DNA of 50,569 nt from NCBI GenBank assembly GCA_030038535.1, contig JASHSV010000278.1:1-50569 (forward strand). Reading direction: 5' to 3'. The notes beneath the pieces were generated by a model, which saw only the letters and a program-made list of their open reading frames with translations, ran no database searches and was not told the DNA's origin. Both the position numbers and the translations under genes were made by a program. Every line of letters starts with the position of its first letter. The stretch's first letter is position 1. This DNA is from Candidatus Acidiferrales bacterium. GTDB lineage: Bacteria; Acidobacteriota; Terriglobia; Acidiferrales; UBA7541. Shown here in pieces: positions 1 to 39,324 of this stretch.

Positions 1-993
1 ATGGCGGCGTCTGCGGGAGAGCAGCCGGAGCCGGTGGTGCGCATTGCGGGTGTGAGCCAGTTTGGGTTGACGCCGGACGGGCGGACGCTGGTGTTCACGC
101 AATCGAGCCTGGCGGCGCCGGCGGAGCTTTTTACGGCGGGCGCGGACGGGAAGGACGTGCGGCAGATCACGCACCAGAACACTGCGCTCGTGGCACAACT
201 CGATTTGCCGCCGGCGGAACACTTCACGTTCAAAGCGTCGGACGGAGAGGAGATCTACGGGATGCTGCTGCGGCCGCCGGGCTTCGACGCGACGAAGAAA
301 TATCCAATGGTGCTGCTGGCGCACGGCGGGCCGCAGACTATGTGGGAGGATGGGTGGGGCTACCGTTGGAACGCGCAGATGTTTGCCTCGCCGGGATACG
401 TGGTGGTGATGATCAACCGGCGGGGCTCGACGGGATTCGGGCAGAAATTCACTGACGAAATCCAGGACGACTGGGGCGGAAAGGCGTACACGGATTTGAT
501 GGAAGGAACCGACTACGTGCTGGGGAAATATCCGTTCATCGACGGGACGCGGATGGTGGCGGGAGGCGGTTCGTACGGCGGGTTCATGATGGACTGGTTT
601 GCGACGCACGCGAAGGGGCGGTTCCGGGCAATCTGGTCGCATGCAGGCGTCTACAACCAGGTGAGCATGATTGCGACGGAGGAAATTTGGTTCCCAGTGC
701 ACGAATTCCGGGGCACGCCGTGGACAAATCCGGCATCGTACGCGAAGTGGTCGCCGGAGACATATGCGGGAGAACTGGGCAAATACAAAACGCCGACGCT
801 GGTGATTGCCGGCGAGTTGGATTACAGAGTGCCGTACACGCAGAGCCTGGAATTTTTCACGGCGCTCCAAATGCAGGATGTACCGTCGAAGCTGGTGCTA
901 TTTCCTGACGAAGGCCACTGGGTGCTGAAACCGCAGAACAGCCAGTATTGGTACAAGACCGTGCTGGATTGGATTGCGACTTACGTGAAGTAG
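1..993 (+). CDS. S9 family peptidase (prolyl oligopeptidase-like), C-terminal part
   Basis: This is the C-terminal catalytic part of a serine peptidase of the prolyl oligopeptidase / dipeptidyl-peptidase / acylaminoacyl-peptidase family, which cleaves peptides. The alpha/beta-hydrolase fold is plain: an HGGP oxyanion motif near residue 108, the nucleophile elbow GGSYGGF with Ser191, an acid in GELDYRVP (Asp274), and the base in DEGHW (His306), counting from base 1. Only the end of the beta-propeller-like region is visible before it. Family members usually have 600-700 residues, so the gene almost certainly begins upstream of the window and the in-frame ATG at base 1 is probably internal. It ends in TAG at 991. 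A ~490 bp gap with strong secondary structure follows. Confidence 0.93.
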   Translation: MAASAGEQPEPVVRIAGVSQFGLTPDGRTLVFTQSSLAAPAELFTAGADGKDVRQITHQNTALVAQLDLPPAEHFTFKASDGEEIYGMLLRPPGFDATKKYPMVLLAHGGPQTMWEDGWGYRWNAQMFASPGYVVVMINRRGSTGFGQKFTDEIQDDWGGKAYTDLMEGTDYVLGKYPFIDGTRMVAGGGSYGGFMMDWFATHAKGRFRAIWSHAGVYNQVSMIATEEIWFPVHEFRGTPWTNPASYAKWSPETYAGELGKYKTPTLVIAGELDYRVPYTQSLEFFTALQMQDVPSKLVLFPDEGHWVLKPQNSQYWYKTVLDWIATYVK

Positions 994-1104
994 TGGAAGC
1001 GGCAGGTGGTATGCGGAGTACCGCTGCAAGGGATTGCACATTTCGAGACCCTGGGAGACGGAACCATCTGTCAAATCCTTCTCCGAAATTTCTAACCTTA
1101 GATT

Positions 1105-1359
1105 GGGCAACGAGATGGGGACGCGTGGCGCTGGCAGGGCGCGTGCAATTGCCCGGTGCTGGAAGCCCGGCTGTGCGCTGCAGCGTGCTCGCGGAGTTCC
1201 CCCGCTCCCGGCGCCGCTCGCAGCGTGCCGAGCACGAACTGAGAACCCGTAAAGGCGGGTTCACGGTCGCGACTCGGAAACAGCGCGGTCTTCATTGTTC
1301 GACTGATTCCTCCGCATGAGGCGGTTCGGGATCTCCTCCCCCGGCCGCCTCCCTTTTTT
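1105..1359 (+). ncRNA. candidate structured RNA, family not identified
   Basis: The gap after the S9 peptidase holds many nested perfect inverted repeats and no convincing reading frame. Stems seen: GGGCAA 1105-1110 with TTGCCC 1149-1154; GCGCTG 1175-1180 with CAGCGC 1281-1286, enclosing CGTGCTCG 1184-1191 with CGAGCACG 1229-1236 and GAACCCG 1243-1249 with CGGGTTC 1256-1262. This forms a closed multibranch fold. It ends in a strong intrinsic terminator at 1318-1359. Size (~250 nt) and a late GAACCC/GGGTTC hairpin loosely recall 6S RNA, but I do not see the diagnostic motifs of RNase P RNA, tmRNA or SRP RNA. It could instead be a structured 3' UTR of the peptidase mRNA. The 5' end is not defined. 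Confidence 0.4.
1318..1359 (+). terminator. intrinsic terminator
   Basis: GAGGCGG (1318-1324) pairs with CCGCCTC (1345-1351). An inner stem CGGG/CCCG (1327-1330 with 1340-1343) extends the hairpin, and six T residues follow at 1354-1359. It ends the transcript reading rightward from the S9 peptidase or from the candidate RNA. Confidence 0.75.
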
Positions 1360-1458: not shown

Positions 1459-1464
1459 GATAGA
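1459..1464 (+). promoter_or_regulatory. -10-like box TAGAAT before the membrane protein gene
   Basis: TAGAAT lies 19 bases upstream of the GTG at 1484, with a GGAGG-like ribosome site between the two (about 1474-1478). No clear -35 box is visible. The spacing fits a short leader for the following gene. Confidence 0.4.
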
Positions 1465-1483
1465 ATCGCGGGGCGGAGGGGCG

Positions 1484-2077
1484 GTGGAAAAGCATTTGGC
1501 AGTTCTGCGCTGGGTGTGGCTGGCGTTTGTGGCCGTGTGGGCTCCGACGTACGTGATTTACTGGAGTCCGGTGGATTTTCTTTACCTGTGCAACGTCGGC
1601 GTGATTCTGACCTTGGTGGGATTGTGGCAGCGAAGCAGCCTGCTGCTATCGAGCCAGGCGGTGGGGACGGTAGTGATTGGGCCGCTGTGGCTACTGGATG
1701 TGAGCTGGGGCGCAGTGACGCACGGCCGGCTGCTGATCGGCGGGACGGAATACATGTGGGACGCGACGCGGCCGCTGTGGGTGCGGCTGCTTTCGTTCGA
1801 TCACGTGGCAGTGCCGCTCGCAACGTGCTGGGCCATTCGCAAGCTGGGATACGACCGGCGGGCGTGGGGATTGCAGGCCGGAATTGCCGGCGTGGTGCTG
1901 GTGCTGTCGCGCATCGTGGAACCGTGGAAAAACATCAATTTCGCGCAGAAGGAATTGGTGACTTTTCACACCTGGGGGCCGGCGCCCGTGCATCTGCTGG
2001 TGATTTGGAGCGTGGTAGTGCTGGTGGTGTATTGGCCAGCGCATGCGGTGCTGTGCCGGTGGATGGGGCAGAAGTGA
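1484..2077 (+). CDS. multi-pass membrane protein of unknown function
   Basis: I do not recognise this 197-residue protein. It is very hydrophobic, with about five predicted membrane segments rich in Trp, Leu and Val, a conserved-looking FDHVAVPLA stretch mid-protein and a short basic C terminus (CRWMGQK). No catalytic motif is visible. The GTG start is supported by GGAGG about 7 bases upstream and by a TAGAAT box before that. It is convergent with the VWFA gene on the other strand, with only about 33 bases between the stops. The composition matches its neighbours, so there is no sign of transfer. Confidence 0.75.
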   Translation: MEKHLAVLRWVWLAFVAVWAPTYVIYWSPVDFLYLCNVGVILTLVGLWQRSSLLLSSQAVGTVVIGPLWLLDVSWGAVTHGRLLIGGTEYMWDATRPLWVRLLSFDHVAVPLATCWAIRKLGYDRRAWGLQAGIAGVVLVLSRIVEPWKNINFAQKELVTFHTWGPAPVHLLVIWSVVVLVVYWPAHAVLCRWMGQK

Positions 2078-2110: not shown

Positions 2111-3826
2111 TTAGCGGCAATCCGTTGAGGCGTTGGCCGCAGCGATGTGGTCCTGGACAGTATCCCTGACAACTTCGCGGATCTGATAGGGAGCCTTTGG
2201 CGCGGGAAAGGTGAGGGTAGCGTGAAGGCCTTCGGTCTTGAACCTAGCGAGTGTTTTGGGCTTTAGATACAAATCCATGATGGCTTCTTTTCCTGCGATC
2301 AGGTTACCGGTGCAATCTTCGAGCAGAGTGAGAAAAGTGAGCTGCTGGACTTTCCGGCCGCCGCGCGTGGCGAACTTCAACCCGCTGACGTCTACCGAAA
2401 CGACGACAAGGATGGTCGCCGGTCCCTTGCCGGCCGCATGCGGCGAGGCATGCACGACAACTGGAATTTGGGCGAGCTGGTCTCGAGTAAACGCTTCGCG
2501 ATTGATTCTTTCCTGCGCCGTGCTTCCTTCGTCCTTCTTCTCCGCATAGAAATAGCCTGCACGAGACTGGAGGGTGTAGTTTCCCGCGGCGCTCAGCTTG
2601 ACTTTCAGCTCGTGATATTTGTCGTCGGGCCGCGATACGGGAGTGAATCCGAGCAGATAGGAAACTTCGGGAACAGAAACGACGGCCTGCATCCGCCCGA
2701 TCACGTCGTTGGTATTCATAATGAACTGACCACCGGTGGCCGCGGCGGCGGCGGCCATGAACTCCGGCAAAACCATTTGACGCACGGCAGGATCGATGCG
2801 GCGGCCTTCCGGATACTCGGTCTGGGAGACCATGCCTTCCGAATCGATAGAATTGATGATGATGCGGGCGCGAAGGGCGGCATCCAGAATCGCACTGGTT
2901 TGCGGCTGCATATCGCCGGTGACAAAGCCGGGAGAAAGGATCACAAGGATACGCTCCTCCGGCGCAGCGGCCAGTTGCCGGACAGCAATGCGGAGCACAT
3001 CGAGTGCAGCGAGCGAGGAGCCTTTCGATTGAACCCAGATCGCGTTGGCGTAGTCATCAACGAATGGGTCCTGATTGGCGATGCATACCTTGTCGTCCGG
3101 CAGGCATTTGCAGGAAATCGCTTCGGCAACGGCAGCATCCTTTGCCCACTGGTCAAGATGATTGGCAATGACGTAGGCCTGATAGGCGGTGAGCGTGGGG
3201 CAATCGGAAAGAGGAGCGGCGCCGCGCTGGACGTGCAGTGTCACGCGGCCCAGGCCGGCGAGCAGAACGGCGGAGTCAGAAGTGAAATCAACGGTCACGG
3301 TTCCGGAGTCCGTGAAAATGGCCACGCGATCGGAGGGCTGCATGCCGGAGGAGATGAATTTCTCCGCGGCGCGCTTGGATTGGTCGAGCGGACGAATCCC
3401 GCCGTGCGTATCGTCAATAAAGAGCGCGATGCAACGGGGATGCGTGGCTGAGGGAGGGGCGGCGTCTGCGGCCGACCGTTCTGGTTTCTGCCGGGGCGAA
3501 GGGCTTTCCGGCGAATGCGCCGGCGACTTTTCCTCCGAGAAAAATTCGACGGGGCGCGGGCCGTTATTATCGAATATCTGGAAATCGGAGGCGGCGAGAC
3601 CGGCCACGGGGCGACCCTTCGCGTCGCGAACGGTGACGCGAAGTTCAACGAGATTGGACTCGACGGCAAAAGTAGCGGACGGCGGCTTGTAAGGCCCGTA
3701 GCGGATCGTGATTTCCCTGGGCTCTTTAACTTCCTGGGCAGGCTGGGATGTCGCCTGTGCGAAGACGGGAGCGCACACGAAGAAATACGAAAGTGAGTAC
3801 GCCAGGAGCGATGGCAAAGGCTTCAT
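2111..3826 (-). CDS. VWFA-related acidobacterial secreted protein (copy 1)
   Basis: A 571-residue exported protein of the acidobacterial VWFA-related type. It opens with a signal peptide (MKPLPSLLAYSL... ending APVFAQA), then a short beta region (FAVESNLVELRVTVRD, GLAASDFQIFDN) that precedes the VWA domain in this family. The VWA domain begins at CIALFIDDTHGG, where the metal-site motif is FIDDT rather than classical DxSxS. The C-terminal third has a beta-sandwich look. Function is unknown; VWA domains generally bind proteins or matrix. I chose the ATG at 3826 because the signal peptide starts there; a TTG at 3859 would add 11 residues but has no ribosome site. It is divergent from the patatin gene, sharing a ~120 bp promoter region. 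Confidence 0.85.
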   Translation of the reverse strand: MKPLPSLLAYSLSYFFVCAPVFAQATSQPAQEVKEPREITIRYGPYKPPSATFAVESNLVELRVTVRDAKGRPVAGLAASDFQIFDNNGPRPVEFFSEEKSPAHSPESPSPRQKPERSAADAAPPSATHPRCIALFIDDTHGGIRPLDQSKRAAEKFISSGMQPSDRVAIFTDSGTVTVDFTSDSAVLLAGLGRVTLHVQRGAAPLSDCPTLTAYQAYVIANHLDQWAKDAAVAEAISCKCLPDDKVCIANQDPFVDDYANAIWVQSKGSSLAALDVLRIAVRQLAAAPEERILVILSPGFVTGDMQPQTSAILDAALRARIIINSIDSEGMVSQTEYPEGRRIDPAVRQMVLPEFMAAAAAATGGQFIMNTNDVIGRMQAVVSVPEVSYLLGFTPVSRPDDKYHELKVKLSAAGNYTLQSRAGYFYAEKKDEGSTAQERINREAFTRDQLAQIPVVVHASPHAAGKGPATILVVVSVDVSGLKFATRGGRKVQQLTFLTLLEDCTGNLIAGKEAIMDLYLKPKTLARFKTEGLHATLTFPAPKAPYQIREVVRDTVQDHIAAANASTDCR

Positions 3827-3947
3827 GCGGAGGACCCCGTATTTTGCGTATGATGCCAAGAGATTCGCTCAGGATTCCCGGGACAACAGACCATACCTGT
3901 ACCACGAGGACTGCCGGGTGAGCCGCGGTTGACTGCGGCGGGAGCGA

Positions 3948-5525
3948 ATGGAACAATCGCGACCCGTGCCGGCTGACGACGCCAGCGAACAACTGAAGCG
4001 GGAGCGCGTGGAATTCGGAGCGCGCCTGGAGAGCGAAGGGGCGCGCGAGGTGTGGAAGAGTTTTCCCGGGCGTATCGCGCTGGCGCTCTCCGGAGGCGGG
4101 ACACGCGGGGCCTACCAGGCGGGCGCACTGTTGGCATTCCAGGACGCGGAACTTCCCACGCACATCATCGCGGCAACATCAATCGGCAGCATCAACGCGG
4201 CGGGATACGCAGGAAACTCCGACACGCTGGTGGGAAACGCCGAAGCGGTGGTGAACCATTGGCTGGGCGTGACGCCAACGCTGGTGGGAATCGAATGGAC
4301 GCGGTACGGGTGGATGCTGGGGGGACTGATCGCGTTCTGGGCCGGAGTTGGGAACCTGATTTACACGTTGCTGGCCTCGGAAGGCTACGCGTTGTCGCTG
4401 CACAATCCGAAACAGACGTGGACGCTTCTGGGGATGGCGGGACTGGTGATGCTGCTGCTCTACGATTACCTGCCGTACGTGATCTACATCGTGCGGAATC
4501 TGCTGGCGGGAAAAGCGCTGAAGATACAAAGGCGAAGAGCGGCCTTATCGATTTTGGGCAACGCAATCATGGTCGTGTTTCTCCTGGCGCTGCTGGACGA
4601 GATGGAAGTAGTGCCGCGGTTCCGAGCCCTGGTGCGGCTGTATCCCGCTTATGCGGTGGCGGTCGGAGCACTGGTCGGGCTGCTTTTGATGTCGCGTCGC
4701 TATTGGCGGGTGCCGCTGAGCGGTTTCATGCACAAACTGCTGCGGCTGCCGTTGCGGCCGGGGCTGTTTCCCAACTACGAGCGGGCGCGGTTCCTGCGCG
4801 AGCGGCTTTCGGAAGAGAAGCTGCGGGCGTCGCCGATCCACGTGATCTTCAGCGCTGCGGATTTGCAGACCGGGAACCCGGTGTTTTTCTCGAACACGTC
4901 GAAGGAAAAGCTGGAGGCGGAAAGGGGAGCGGACGCGGAGTTTATCGAGTCGATGCTGGTGGAAACGACGGACCTTGTGGGGGCTGTGGTGGCGTCGTCG
5001 GCGCTGCCGCTGGCGTTCGAGCCCATGCTGCTCAACGGCCGGCTGTACGCGGATGGAGGATTGTGCGCCAACCAGCCGCTGCGGCCTGCGGTCCGGCTGG
5101 GGGCAGACGTGGTGTTCCTGATCATGATGGATTCCGTGGCGGGAAAAAAGAAGACGCTGAAGACGTTTGTGGACGTCGGACTGTCGGCGGTGGACATCCT
5201 GATGCGGCAGACACTGGTGAACGACATGCGCATCGCTGCGAATTTCAATGTGACGTGCGAACGGGCCGCGGAGAAGAACGGCCTGCACCCGGAAGAAATT
5301 GAAATCGTGCTGGGGGCGCGGCGGTACCGGTATGTGAAGTCATTCGCAGTGTGTCCTGAGGAATCGTTGCCGGGAGCGGCGCTGGACTTCAGCCTGGAGC
5401 GGACGCGGGAAGCGATCCTGCTAGGCTATCGCGAGGGGACGAAGCAGATCCTCAATTTTCTGGCGTACGCACGGACGGCGCGGTTCAGCTATCCAAGGCA
5501 CGAACTGGAGTGGGAGTTGCACTGA
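3948..5525 (+). CDS. patatin-like phospholipase with an inserted membrane block
   Basis: A predicted lipid acyl hydrolase. The patatin fold shows the glycine-rich oxyanion motif LSGGGTRGAYQAGAL (about residues 46-60), the nucleophile in ATSIGS (Ser78), and the dyad aspartate in ADGGLCANQ (Asp369). The motif has Ala where GxSxG normally has its first Gly. Between nucleophile and aspartate sits an unusual block of about four hydrophobic segments (roughly residues 120-250), suggesting a membrane-anchored enzyme. At 525 residues it is longer than simple patatins. GGGAG lies 7 bases before the ATG. The cupin gene follows after ~50 bp in the same direction and may be co-transcribed. Confidence 0.88.
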   Translation: MEQSRPVPADDASEQLKRERVEFGARLESEGAREVWKSFPGRIALALSGGGTRGAYQAGALLAFQDAELPTHIIAATSIGSINAAGYAGNSDTLVGNAEAVVNHWLGVTPTLVGIEWTRYGWMLGGLIAFWAGVGNLIYTLLASEGYALSLHNPKQTWTLLGMAGLVMLLLYDYLPYVIYIVRNLLAGKALKIQRRRAALSILGNAIMVVFLLALLDEMEVVPRFRALVRLYPAYAVAVGALVGLLLMSRRYWRVPLSGFMHKLLRLPLRPGLFPNYERARFLRERLSEEKLRASPIHVIFSAADLQTGNPVFFSNTSKEKLEAERGADAEFIESMLVETTDLVGAVVASSALPLAFEPMLLNGRLYADGGLCANQPLRPAVRLGADVVFLIMMDSVAGKKKTLKTFVDVGLSAVDILMRQTLVNDMRIAANFNVTCERAAEKNGLHPEEIEIVLGARRYRYVKSFAVCPEESLPGAALDFSLERTREAILLGYREGTKQILNFLAYARTARFSYPRHELEWELH

Positions 5526-38032: not shown

Positions 38033-39204
38033 CCCGCAATTCTTTTCCTCCTCTCGCAGCAGCCTTTCTGCTGCTCGCAGGCGCGGCGAATCCCGCGCGC
38101 GCCTACGTCATCAATCAGCAGATTGCGGACACGACCAACCCGGCGAACGCAGGCGTTTCCGCCTGCCCCATGCCCGAACAGATGAATCTGGATGAGTCCG
38201 GCGGCATAGATCGCCAATGGGACACCACGCTGGGCGCGAACATTCTCACCACGCCGGGATATCCGGGCGGAGCGCAGGCGGAGGTTCAGGGAGTCCTCCT
38301 GGACTCGTTTTCCGTCTGGGCCGGTGTCGCTGGCAGCGGGCTCACTCCCGCCTCCTACGCGCCACTCGGCACAACCAGCGGCGGGAACACCTGTACTCCC
38401 ACTGACGGGCTCAACACCATCTGCTTCGCTCAGGACGACAGCTTTGCACCCGGCGTCCTCGCCTACACCACGGTCGTGGCCGCGACGGTGATCGGGCAGA
38501 CGCTGGGTGCCAAGACCGCTTCTTCTATCGGCCAGATTCTGGACGCAGACGTGGAGCTGAATCCAGCGGTCGCATTTGCCACTCCCGGCGCGCTGGCCGC
38601 GAACCCCACGGCTTACGACCTCGAAAGCATCTTAATCCACGAGCTCGGCCACACGCTCGGGTTCGCGGAATCTCCCGTGGCCGTCGCCGCCATGTTTCCT
38701 TTCGCGCCCGCACCAGGCACATTTCTTGGCACGCGCCCGACGCCGGAGGCTCCCGACGCTCCCTTGGCCGACGATGATCGCGCCGCAATGCGCGTCAACT
38801 ACCCTGGCCCCATCGCCTATGGCACGATCAGCGGCCGGATTCTGCCTGCGAATCCGCTTTCGCTCGCGAGCTTTCCTGCCACCTCGGCCGGAATGTGGGT
38901 CACCGGCTATTACGGCGCCCACGTCGTCGCGGTCAATGCGGCCACAGGTCAGGTCGTGGCGGGCGCTCTTGCCGGTTGGTCCTGCGCTTCTTCTCAGCAA
39001 GTCACGAGCTTCGACGGGACTTACACCATTGGCGGGCTGCCTCTGGGGCAAAGCTACACACTCTATGTTGAGCCGGTCACCGGACCGGTTTCACCCCAGA
39101 TGCTTTCCGGCCCGCTCGTTACGCAGCCCTGCGCCGCCGGAACTGCCAACGCTTGCACGCCCCCGCCCGCAAACACGCTCTTTGATGCCCAAGTGAAGCC
39201 TTGA
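38029..39204 (+). CDS. matrixin-type metalloprotease with altered zinc motif
   Basis: A 391-residue exported protease of the metzincin clan. After a signal peptide (AAAFLLLAGAANPARA) comes the catalytic domain. The zinc motif is IHELGHTLGFAESP (His204, Glu205, His208), then a Met-turn-like AAMFPF. Canonical matrixins have HExxHxxGxxH; here the third ligand position is Glu214. A conserved ADDDRAAMRVNYP follows, then a C-terminal Ig or carboxypeptidase-regulatory-like domain (YGTISGRILPANP, FDGTYTIGGLPLGQSYTLYV). The two cysteine-bearing ends (CPMPEQ; QPCAAGTANACTPPP) could form disulfides. It is the last gene of the ATGA-coupled operon, so it likely acts with the Ig-like protein outside the cell. 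Confidence 0.85.
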   Translation: MTRNSFPPLAAAFLLLAGAANPARAYVINQQIADTTNPANAGVSACPMPEQMNLDESGGIDRQWDTTLGANILTTPGYPGGAQAEVQGVLLDSFSVWAGVAGSGLTPASYAPLGTTSGGNTCTPTDGLNTICFAQDDSFAPGVLAYTTVVAATVIGQTLGAKTASSIGQILDADVELNPAVAFATPGALAANPTAYDLESILIHELGHTLGFAESPVAVAAMFPFAPAPGTFLGTRPTPEAPDAPLADDDRAAMRVNYPGPIAYGTISGRILPANPLSLASFPATSAGMWVTGYYGAHVVAVNAATGQVVAGALAGWSCASSQQVTSFDGTYTIGGLPLGQSYTLYVEPVTGPVSPQMLSGPLVTQPCAAGTANACTPPPANTLFDAQVKP

Positions 39205-39234
39205 ACGGTCCTGCCGCCATGCCGCCGCCGGGCA

Positions 39235-39270
39235 AAAGAAAAACGGCTCCCGGATTTTCCGGGAGCCGTT
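39235..39270 (-). terminator. strong intrinsic terminator of the minor-pilin operon
   Basis: A perfect 12-bp stem AACGGCTCCCGG (39242-39253) with CCGGGAGCCGTT (39259-39270). On the minus strand it is followed by a T-rich run (TTTCTTTT), so it ends the pilin operon. It lies 38 bases after the matrixin stop and may also stop plus-strand transcription, although only ATTTCC follows on that side. Confidence 0.88.
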
Positions 39271-39324
39271 CGGATTTCCGTTCTCTCTTGCCCGCCAGGG
39301 CTGCGGTCCCCGGCTCGCAATCCT

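What the first reader, a model, noticed from the sequence alone, without database searches (positions are those of the whole stretch)
1105..1359. Structured, terminator-ended intergenic region: possible unassigned small RNA
At least four perfect inverted repeats nest into a multibranch fold (1105/1149, 1175/1281, 1184/1229, 1243/1256) and a strong terminator follows (1318-1359). This is far more structure than a normal spacer, and no coding frame fits. It may be a 6S-like RNA or an RNA of its own class; a structured 3' UTR is the simpler alternative.
Basis: partly seen in the sequence, partly recalled or inferred. Interest (0 to 1): 0.7.

Follow-up and report, generated by a model that had tools for sequence, protein, structure and literature searches.

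The report
Genus-restricted structured RNA with terminator
Between two genes of an uncultured soil Acidobacteriota bacterium lies a well-folded, apparently non-coding RNA that ends in a clean transcription terminator and is found only in this genus; it is probably an ordinary orphan small RNA or the structured 3' end of the upstream gene's message, and it is not 6S RNA.

Summary
In the 490-nt gap between an S9 peptidase gene (1-993) and a 197-aa membrane-protein gene (1484-2077), 1170-1284 folds as a three-way junction (z -4.4; second most structured place on the + strand). The cleanest intrinsic terminator of the window follows (1318-1359).

No Rfam family matches. 6S and RNase P (and tmRNA in the congener) lie elsewhere, so 'a missing 6S' is excluded. 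The stretch 1076-1359 is 92% identical, without indels, in the one other genome of the genus (less change than at fourfold sites, P 0.004), with no coding signal. Nothing was found in about 400 other genomes of the class, phages or plasmids. With two sequences covariation cannot be shown: no compensatory double change, only a weak excess of pair-keeping changes.

Best reading: an orphan, genus-specific, terminator-ended RNA (own gene or 3' UTR-derived), perhaps using two invariant C-rich loops against Shine-Dalgarno sites (inferred). A curious lead: its arm 1 is complementary (17/18) to this genus's own 6S apical strand.

The parts
1..993 (+). S9 peptidase gene, 3' part (cut by the contig start); possible parent transcript
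   Evidence: Pfam PF00326, E 1e-61; 705-aa frame in G001
1055..1076 (+). fast-changing stretch that separates the invariant block 1013-1054 from the element
   Evidence: 10 of 22 positions differ in the congener
1077..1120 (+). invariant block; may hold promoter and RNA start (possible -10 TAACCT at 1094-1099, weak)
   Evidence: 0 of 44 positions differ; no sigma-70 match by consensus scan
1105..1359 (+). proposed RNA (5' end inferred, 3' end at the terminator U-tract)
   Evidence: structure, terminator, conservation that ends at 1359
1170..1284 (+). three-way junction: closing helix 1170-1174/1280-1284, arm 1 1175-1226, arm 2 1228-1277
   Evidence: z -4.4; joint fold of two genomes; closing helix uncertain in full-length folds
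1198..1203 (+). C-rich loop UCCCCC of arm 1, invariant
1188..1205 (+). segment complementary to the apical strand of the genome's own 6S RNA (17 of 18)
1318..1359 (+). intrinsic terminator: stem 1318-1330/1340-1351, loop AUCUCCUCC 1331-1339, U-tract 1354-1359
   Evidence: z -3.5; scan of the window; one U-G to U-A change that keeps pairing
1461..1466 (+). TAGAAT, probable -10 of the downstream gene, after the terminator
   Evidence: kept in G001 within an otherwise unconserved spacer; homologues often carry TG-N-TAnnnT upstream
1484..2077 (+). 197-aa hydrophobic protein gene downstream
   Evidence: no Pfam match

Best explanation
A non-coding, terminator-ended RNA on the + strand, present only in this genus: either its own small gene (start about 1105, promoter inside the invariant block 1077-1120) or the structured 3' end of the peptidase mRNA from which a stable fragment is released. 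Shown: a real three-way junction, a clean terminator, constraint between two congeners, no coding signal. Inferred: that it exists as a distinct RNA, and that it regulates in trans by presenting invariant C-rich loops (UCCCCC in arm 1, AUCUCCUCC in the terminator hairpin) to Shine-Dalgarno regions. The confidence given is for a functional sRNA (own gene or 3' UTR-derived); the loop mechanism on its own I put at about 0.2.
For: Structure beyond shuffles. Conservation without indels ends at the terminator's U-tract; the spacer after it is barely alignable and 44 nt shorter in the congener. Change (22/284) is below that at fourfold sites of the two flanking genes (44/276; P 0.004). G001's sequence keeps a fold as stable (-70.3 against -67.6) where random placement of the same changes gives -59.3 +/- 4.6 (14 of 1000 as good). 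In the sister genus G011 the same two genes lie about 68 nt apart without such an element, so it looks like a separable unit. The downstream gene seems to have its own promoter after the terminator. C-rich loops aimed at SD sites are a known sRNA device (PMC3861533; PMC10746234).
Against: Two sequences only; no compensatory double change; the pair-keeping excess is weak when the fold comes from one sequence (1 of 9 broken against 2.5 expected, P 0.13). Against the peptidase gene's fourfold rate alone the constraint is P 0.07. No promoter match. Nothing outside the genus. No expression data. C-rich loops are to be expected now and then in GC-rich sequence.
Confidence: 0.5

Rival explanations
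1. A plain structured 3' UTR and terminator of the peptidase gene: the fold protects the message or is incidental, the terminator ends it, and no separate RNA acts.
For: Same strand, directly downstream of the gene; first clean terminator after it; no promoter match; the 3' flank 1013-1054 is also invariant.
Against: In the sister genus the peptidase gene has only about 68 nt before the next gene and no such element; a fast-changing stretch (10 of 22) separates the gene's flank from the invariant start of the element; 365 nt is long for a 3' UTR.
Confidence: 0.36
2. A cis-acting leader (riboswitch or attenuator) whose terminator controls the 197-aa membrane-protein gene downstream.
For: Structured RNA followed by a terminator upstream of a gene on the same strand.
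Against: Homologues of the gene elsewhere lack the element; a -10-like TAGAAT after the terminator is kept in both congeners and homologues often carry their own TG-N-TAnnnT element; no convincing anti-terminator appeared in the folds.
Confidence: 0.08
3. 6S RNA or another housekeeping RNA in a diverged form.
For: Length and degree of structure only.
Against: No Rfam match; 6S and RNase P found elsewhere in the genome, tmRNA elsewhere in the congener.
Confidence: 0.01

Closest known systems
alpha-r14 / NfeR1 / 'cuckoo' RNAs and CcsR1 (RF02344, RF02791), alphaproteobacterial anti-Shine-Dalgarno sRNAs
   Same: C-rich anti-SD motif (CUCCUCC) exposed in a hairpin loop; terminator-ended small RNA
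   Different: 13.9 and 19.3 bits against cut-offs of 58.8 and 65.3; not the ultraconserved CCUCCUCCC in three hairpins described for alpha-r14 (PMC10746234); a large three-way junction is present; different phylum
3' UTR-derived sRNAs such as CpxQ (PMC9438474)
   Same: Lies directly downstream of an mRNA and would share its terminator; conserved beyond the terminator
   Different: No evidence of processing; about 254 nt and heavily folded; starts some 110 nt after the stop codon
Structured RNA candidates of GC-rich intergenic regions (PMC6429828)
   Same: A structured, non-coding intergenic stretch of unknown function; with two representatives it would be a 'low-ranking candidate' in that scheme
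   Different: No consensus model is possible yet
6S RNA (RF00013)
   Same: Structured RNA of comparable length; arm 1 is complementary to this genus's own 6S apical strand
   Different: Not homologous, different layout, and the real 6S is elsewhere

Membership tests
6S RNA (RF00013) | matches the covariance model | tested here: not met
   no match at gathering score, nor at E up to 5 in 950-1550; 6S candidates elsewhere in both genomes
6S RNA (RF00013) | one long irregular hairpin with a central bubble | tested here: not met
   three-way junction plus terminator
RNase P RNA / tmRNA | matches RF00010 / RF00023 | tested here: not met
   no match in the window; RNase P elsewhere in G000 and G001, tmRNA elsewhere in G001
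alpha-r14 / CcsR1 anti-SD sRNAs | covariance model above cut-off | tested here: not met
   13.9 of 58.8 and 19.3 of 65.3 bits
alpha-r14 / CcsR1 anti-SD sRNAs | unpaired C-rich anti-SD motif in a hairpin loop | tested here: met
   AUCUCCUCC loop of the terminator, predicted unpaired and invariant in both genomes; not the exact CCUCCUCCC
trans-acting sRNA (general) | discrete transcript with intrinsic terminator | tested here: inconclusive
   terminator met; a discrete transcript needs RNA-seq; no promoter match
trans-acting sRNA (general) | regulates mRNAs by base pairing | not testable with these tools
   no expression or target data
structured RNA class | covariation across homologues | tested here: inconclusive
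   two sequences; no double compensatory change; nine pair-keeping one-sided changes on the joint fold; 1 of 9 broken against 2.5 expected on the fold from one sequence
riboswitch / attenuator of the downstream gene | found upstream of the regulated gene in relatives | tested here: not met
   homologues of the 197-aa gene outside the genus lack the element
3' UTR-derived sRNA | shares the upstream mRNA's terminator and is cut from that mRNA | not testable with these tools
   position fits; processing needs RNA-seq

The most novel reading that the evidence does not exclude
The RNA is a genus-specific partner or antagonist of 6S RNA. Its arm 1 (1188-1205) is complementary to the apical strand of this genome's own 6S at 17 of 18 positions. 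The core 14-mer occurs exactly twice in the 3.4 Mb assembly, once in each RNA, on opposite strands. The 6S of nine other genomes of the family lacks it, as those genomes lack this RNA. Against: shuffled RNAs reach the score in 4 of 3000 trials and it was noticed after the fact; in the congener's own pair only a 12-mer is left (67 of 3000); co-folding of the full RNAs predicts no gain over random partners, since both sides are locked in hairpins. A shared, inverted hairpin origin is as likely as an interaction.
Probability: 0.05. Interest if true: 0.65.

Novelty: new member of a known kind. Interest (0 to 1): 0.3.

Why it matters
Small RNAs of Acidobacteriota, among the commonest soil bacteria, are little studied, and this is a candidate with a well-defined 3' end that metatranscriptomes could test. 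If the complementarity to 6S proved functional it would be an unusual way of controlling 6S RNA by another RNA. As it stands it is an orphan candidate of an ordinary kind.

Tried and rejected
Rfam at gathering score and at relaxed E-value: no credible match; CcsR1, CRISPR-DR36 and the rest are far below cut-off. DNA search of 101 relatives and 399 class genomes: only the congener; the other short hits that I opened lie in coding frames. Covariance model R1 of the three-way junction on 151 genomes and, with laxer filters, on 39: only the two known copies, the rest at chance level. Upstream of the 197-aa gene and downstream of the peptidase in relatives: no similar element. Phages, plasmids, viral contigs: only short chance matches. 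Coding: rejected. 6S, RNase P, tmRNA: rejected. Dispersed repeat: rejected, single copy in the genome. SRP RNA was not searched for genome-wide; an apparent likeness of 1117-1140 to part of a bacterial SRP RNA, recalled from memory, is not kept in the congener and was dropped. A second and third covariance model were not built, since nothing more than two near-identical sequences was at hand.

Full report
SETTING. The window is contig C56 of a 79%-complete genome (G000) from an Acidobacteriota family that includes Candidatus Acidiferrales / gp2 records; its one congener held, G001, corresponds to the public record JASHRU010000359. The gap in question is 490 nt long, between the 3' part of an S9 peptidase gene (1-993, Pfam PF00326; 705-aa frame in G001) and a 197-aa hydrophobic protein without Pfam match (1484-2077), both on the + strand.

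THE OBSERVATION. Which of them matter is another question. Folding 1167-1287 gives -67.6 kcal/mol against -52.0 +/- 3.6 for dinucleotide shuffles (z -4.4). A regression-based scan of the whole window ranks it second among distinct places on the + strand, 6 of 8409 windows being as extreme. Fixed windows at step 60 miss it, so the exact z depends on boundaries. The region as a whole (1090-1370) is z -2.0 on the + strand and 0.1 on the - strand. The favoured fold is a three-way junction: closing helix 1170-1174/1280-1284, arm 1 1175-1226, arm 2 1228-1277. In the full-length fold of G001 the closing helix is weak (0.04; 0.5 in the window), though the isolated stretch folds the same way in both. 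The terminator 1318-1359 (z -3.5, U6 tail) is the cleanest found in a scan of the window.

CONSERVATION. G000 and G001 align without a gap from the peptidase gene through 1359 and then lose similarity until just before the next gene. Differences: 11 of 82 at 994-1075 and 22 of 284 at 1076-1359; the stretches 1013-1054 and 1077-1120 have none, while 1055-1076 has 10 of 22. Fourfold sites of the two flanking genes differ at 44 of 276; the element changes less (P 0.004), although against the peptidase gene alone it is P 0.07. Differences fall 7/7/7 over the codon positions, so there is no coding pattern. On the joint fold nine one-sided changes keep pairing and none breaks it, but that fold was chosen to fit both. 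With the fold from the window alone 1 of 9 paired changes breaks a pair (2.5 expected, P 0.13). In an energy test G001's sequence folds better than 986 of 1000 random placements of the same changes. There is no compensatory double change. This suggests constraint on structure but does not prove it.

DISTRIBUTION. Nothing similar appears in 101 relatives, 399 class genomes (the short hits opened lie in coding frames), phages, plasmids or viral contigs. A covariance model of the junction finds only the two copies. In the sister genus G011 the same two genes lie side by side with about 68 nt between them. So the element was gained in this genus or lost in the sister; it behaves like a separable unit. 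The genome holds one copy.

WHAT IT IS NOT. No Rfam family matches. 6S is at G000:C76:8814-9011 and G001:C50:16950-17147, under the cut-off (36 and 41 bits) but alignable with over-cut-off 6S of the family. RNase P is elsewhere in both genomes and tmRNA elsewhere in G001. A leader of the downstream gene is unlikely: its homologues outside the genus lack the element, many of them carry a TG-N-TAnnnT element near the start (14 of 42 against 0.7 in shuffles), and here TAGAAT at 1461-1466 is kept in the otherwise unconserved spacer after the terminator.

HOW IT MAY WORK. Most likely an sRNA, from its own promoter or cut from the peptidase mRNA. No sigma-70 match was found upstream; TAACCT at 1094-1099 is a possible -10 that would put the start near 1105, but this is weak. 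Two loops are C-rich and invariant: UCCCCC (1198-1203) and AUCUCCUCC (1331-1339). Such loops pair with Shine-Dalgarno regions in staphylococcal RNAs (PMC3861533) and in the alpha-r14 RNAs (PMC10746234). This is inference; no target was identified. A divergent Hfq-like match is present in G000 and most of the family. The plain 3' UTR reading remains a strong rival.

A LEAD. The best non-self match of the element in G001's genome (E 0.022) fell inside its 6S gene, on the opposite strand. In G000 the complementarity is 17 of 18 (1188-1205); random genomic pieces reach it in 0 of 3000 and shuffled RNAs in 4 of 3000. The 14-mer CGGAGTTCCCCCGC occurs exactly only in these two places of the G000 assembly, and the 6S of nine other genomes of the family lacks it. 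But the congener's own pair keeps only a 12-mer (67 of 3000 shuffles), full-length co-folding predicts no gain over random partners, and isolated hairpins gain only 2-4 kcal/mol. It was noticed after the fact, so I rate it about 5%.

VERDICT. A real, modestly constrained, orphan structured-RNA candidate with a good terminator. The 6S idea is refuted; sRNA against plain 3' UTR cannot be decided without expression data or more congeners.

Noticed in passing
window 1192-1205 and G000:C76:8918-8931: Exact 14-mer shared on opposite strands by this element and the genome's own 6S apical arm; that 6S apical sequence is specific to this genus among the genomes checked.
   Followed up: partly
window 1013-1054: 42 nt just after the peptidase stop without any change in the congener, with small hairpins; set apart from the reported element by a fast-changing stretch.
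   Followed up: partly
window 39181-39300: Strongest predicted structure of the window (z about -6 on the - strand): hairpin AACGGCTCCCGG-ATTTT-CCGGGAGCCGTT shortly after a stop codon on the + strand, probably a terminator, perhaps for both strands.
   Followed up: partly
window 2111-3859 (-): A 582-aa frame between the 197-aa gene and the next + strand gene (3948-5525); in G001 the two flanking genes are neighbours without it (gene gain or loss).
   Followed up: no
G000:C102:2-484 (-): A second piece, 96% identical at the protein level to the start of the window's peptidase fragment; probably strain variation or an assembly duplicate.
   Followed up: no
loci L034-L096, upstream of the 197-aa gene homologues: Recurrent extended -10-like element (TG-N-TAnnnT, e.g. 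TGTGGTAGGCT): 14 of 42 against 0.7 in shuffles; a hint at the promoter consensus of this group.
   Followed up: partly
G000:C184:2224-2367 and relatives: The family carries only a short, divergent Hfq-like match (25-37 bits), while most members of the order outside it have a full-score Hfq (80-96 bits); no match in G001.
   Followed up: no
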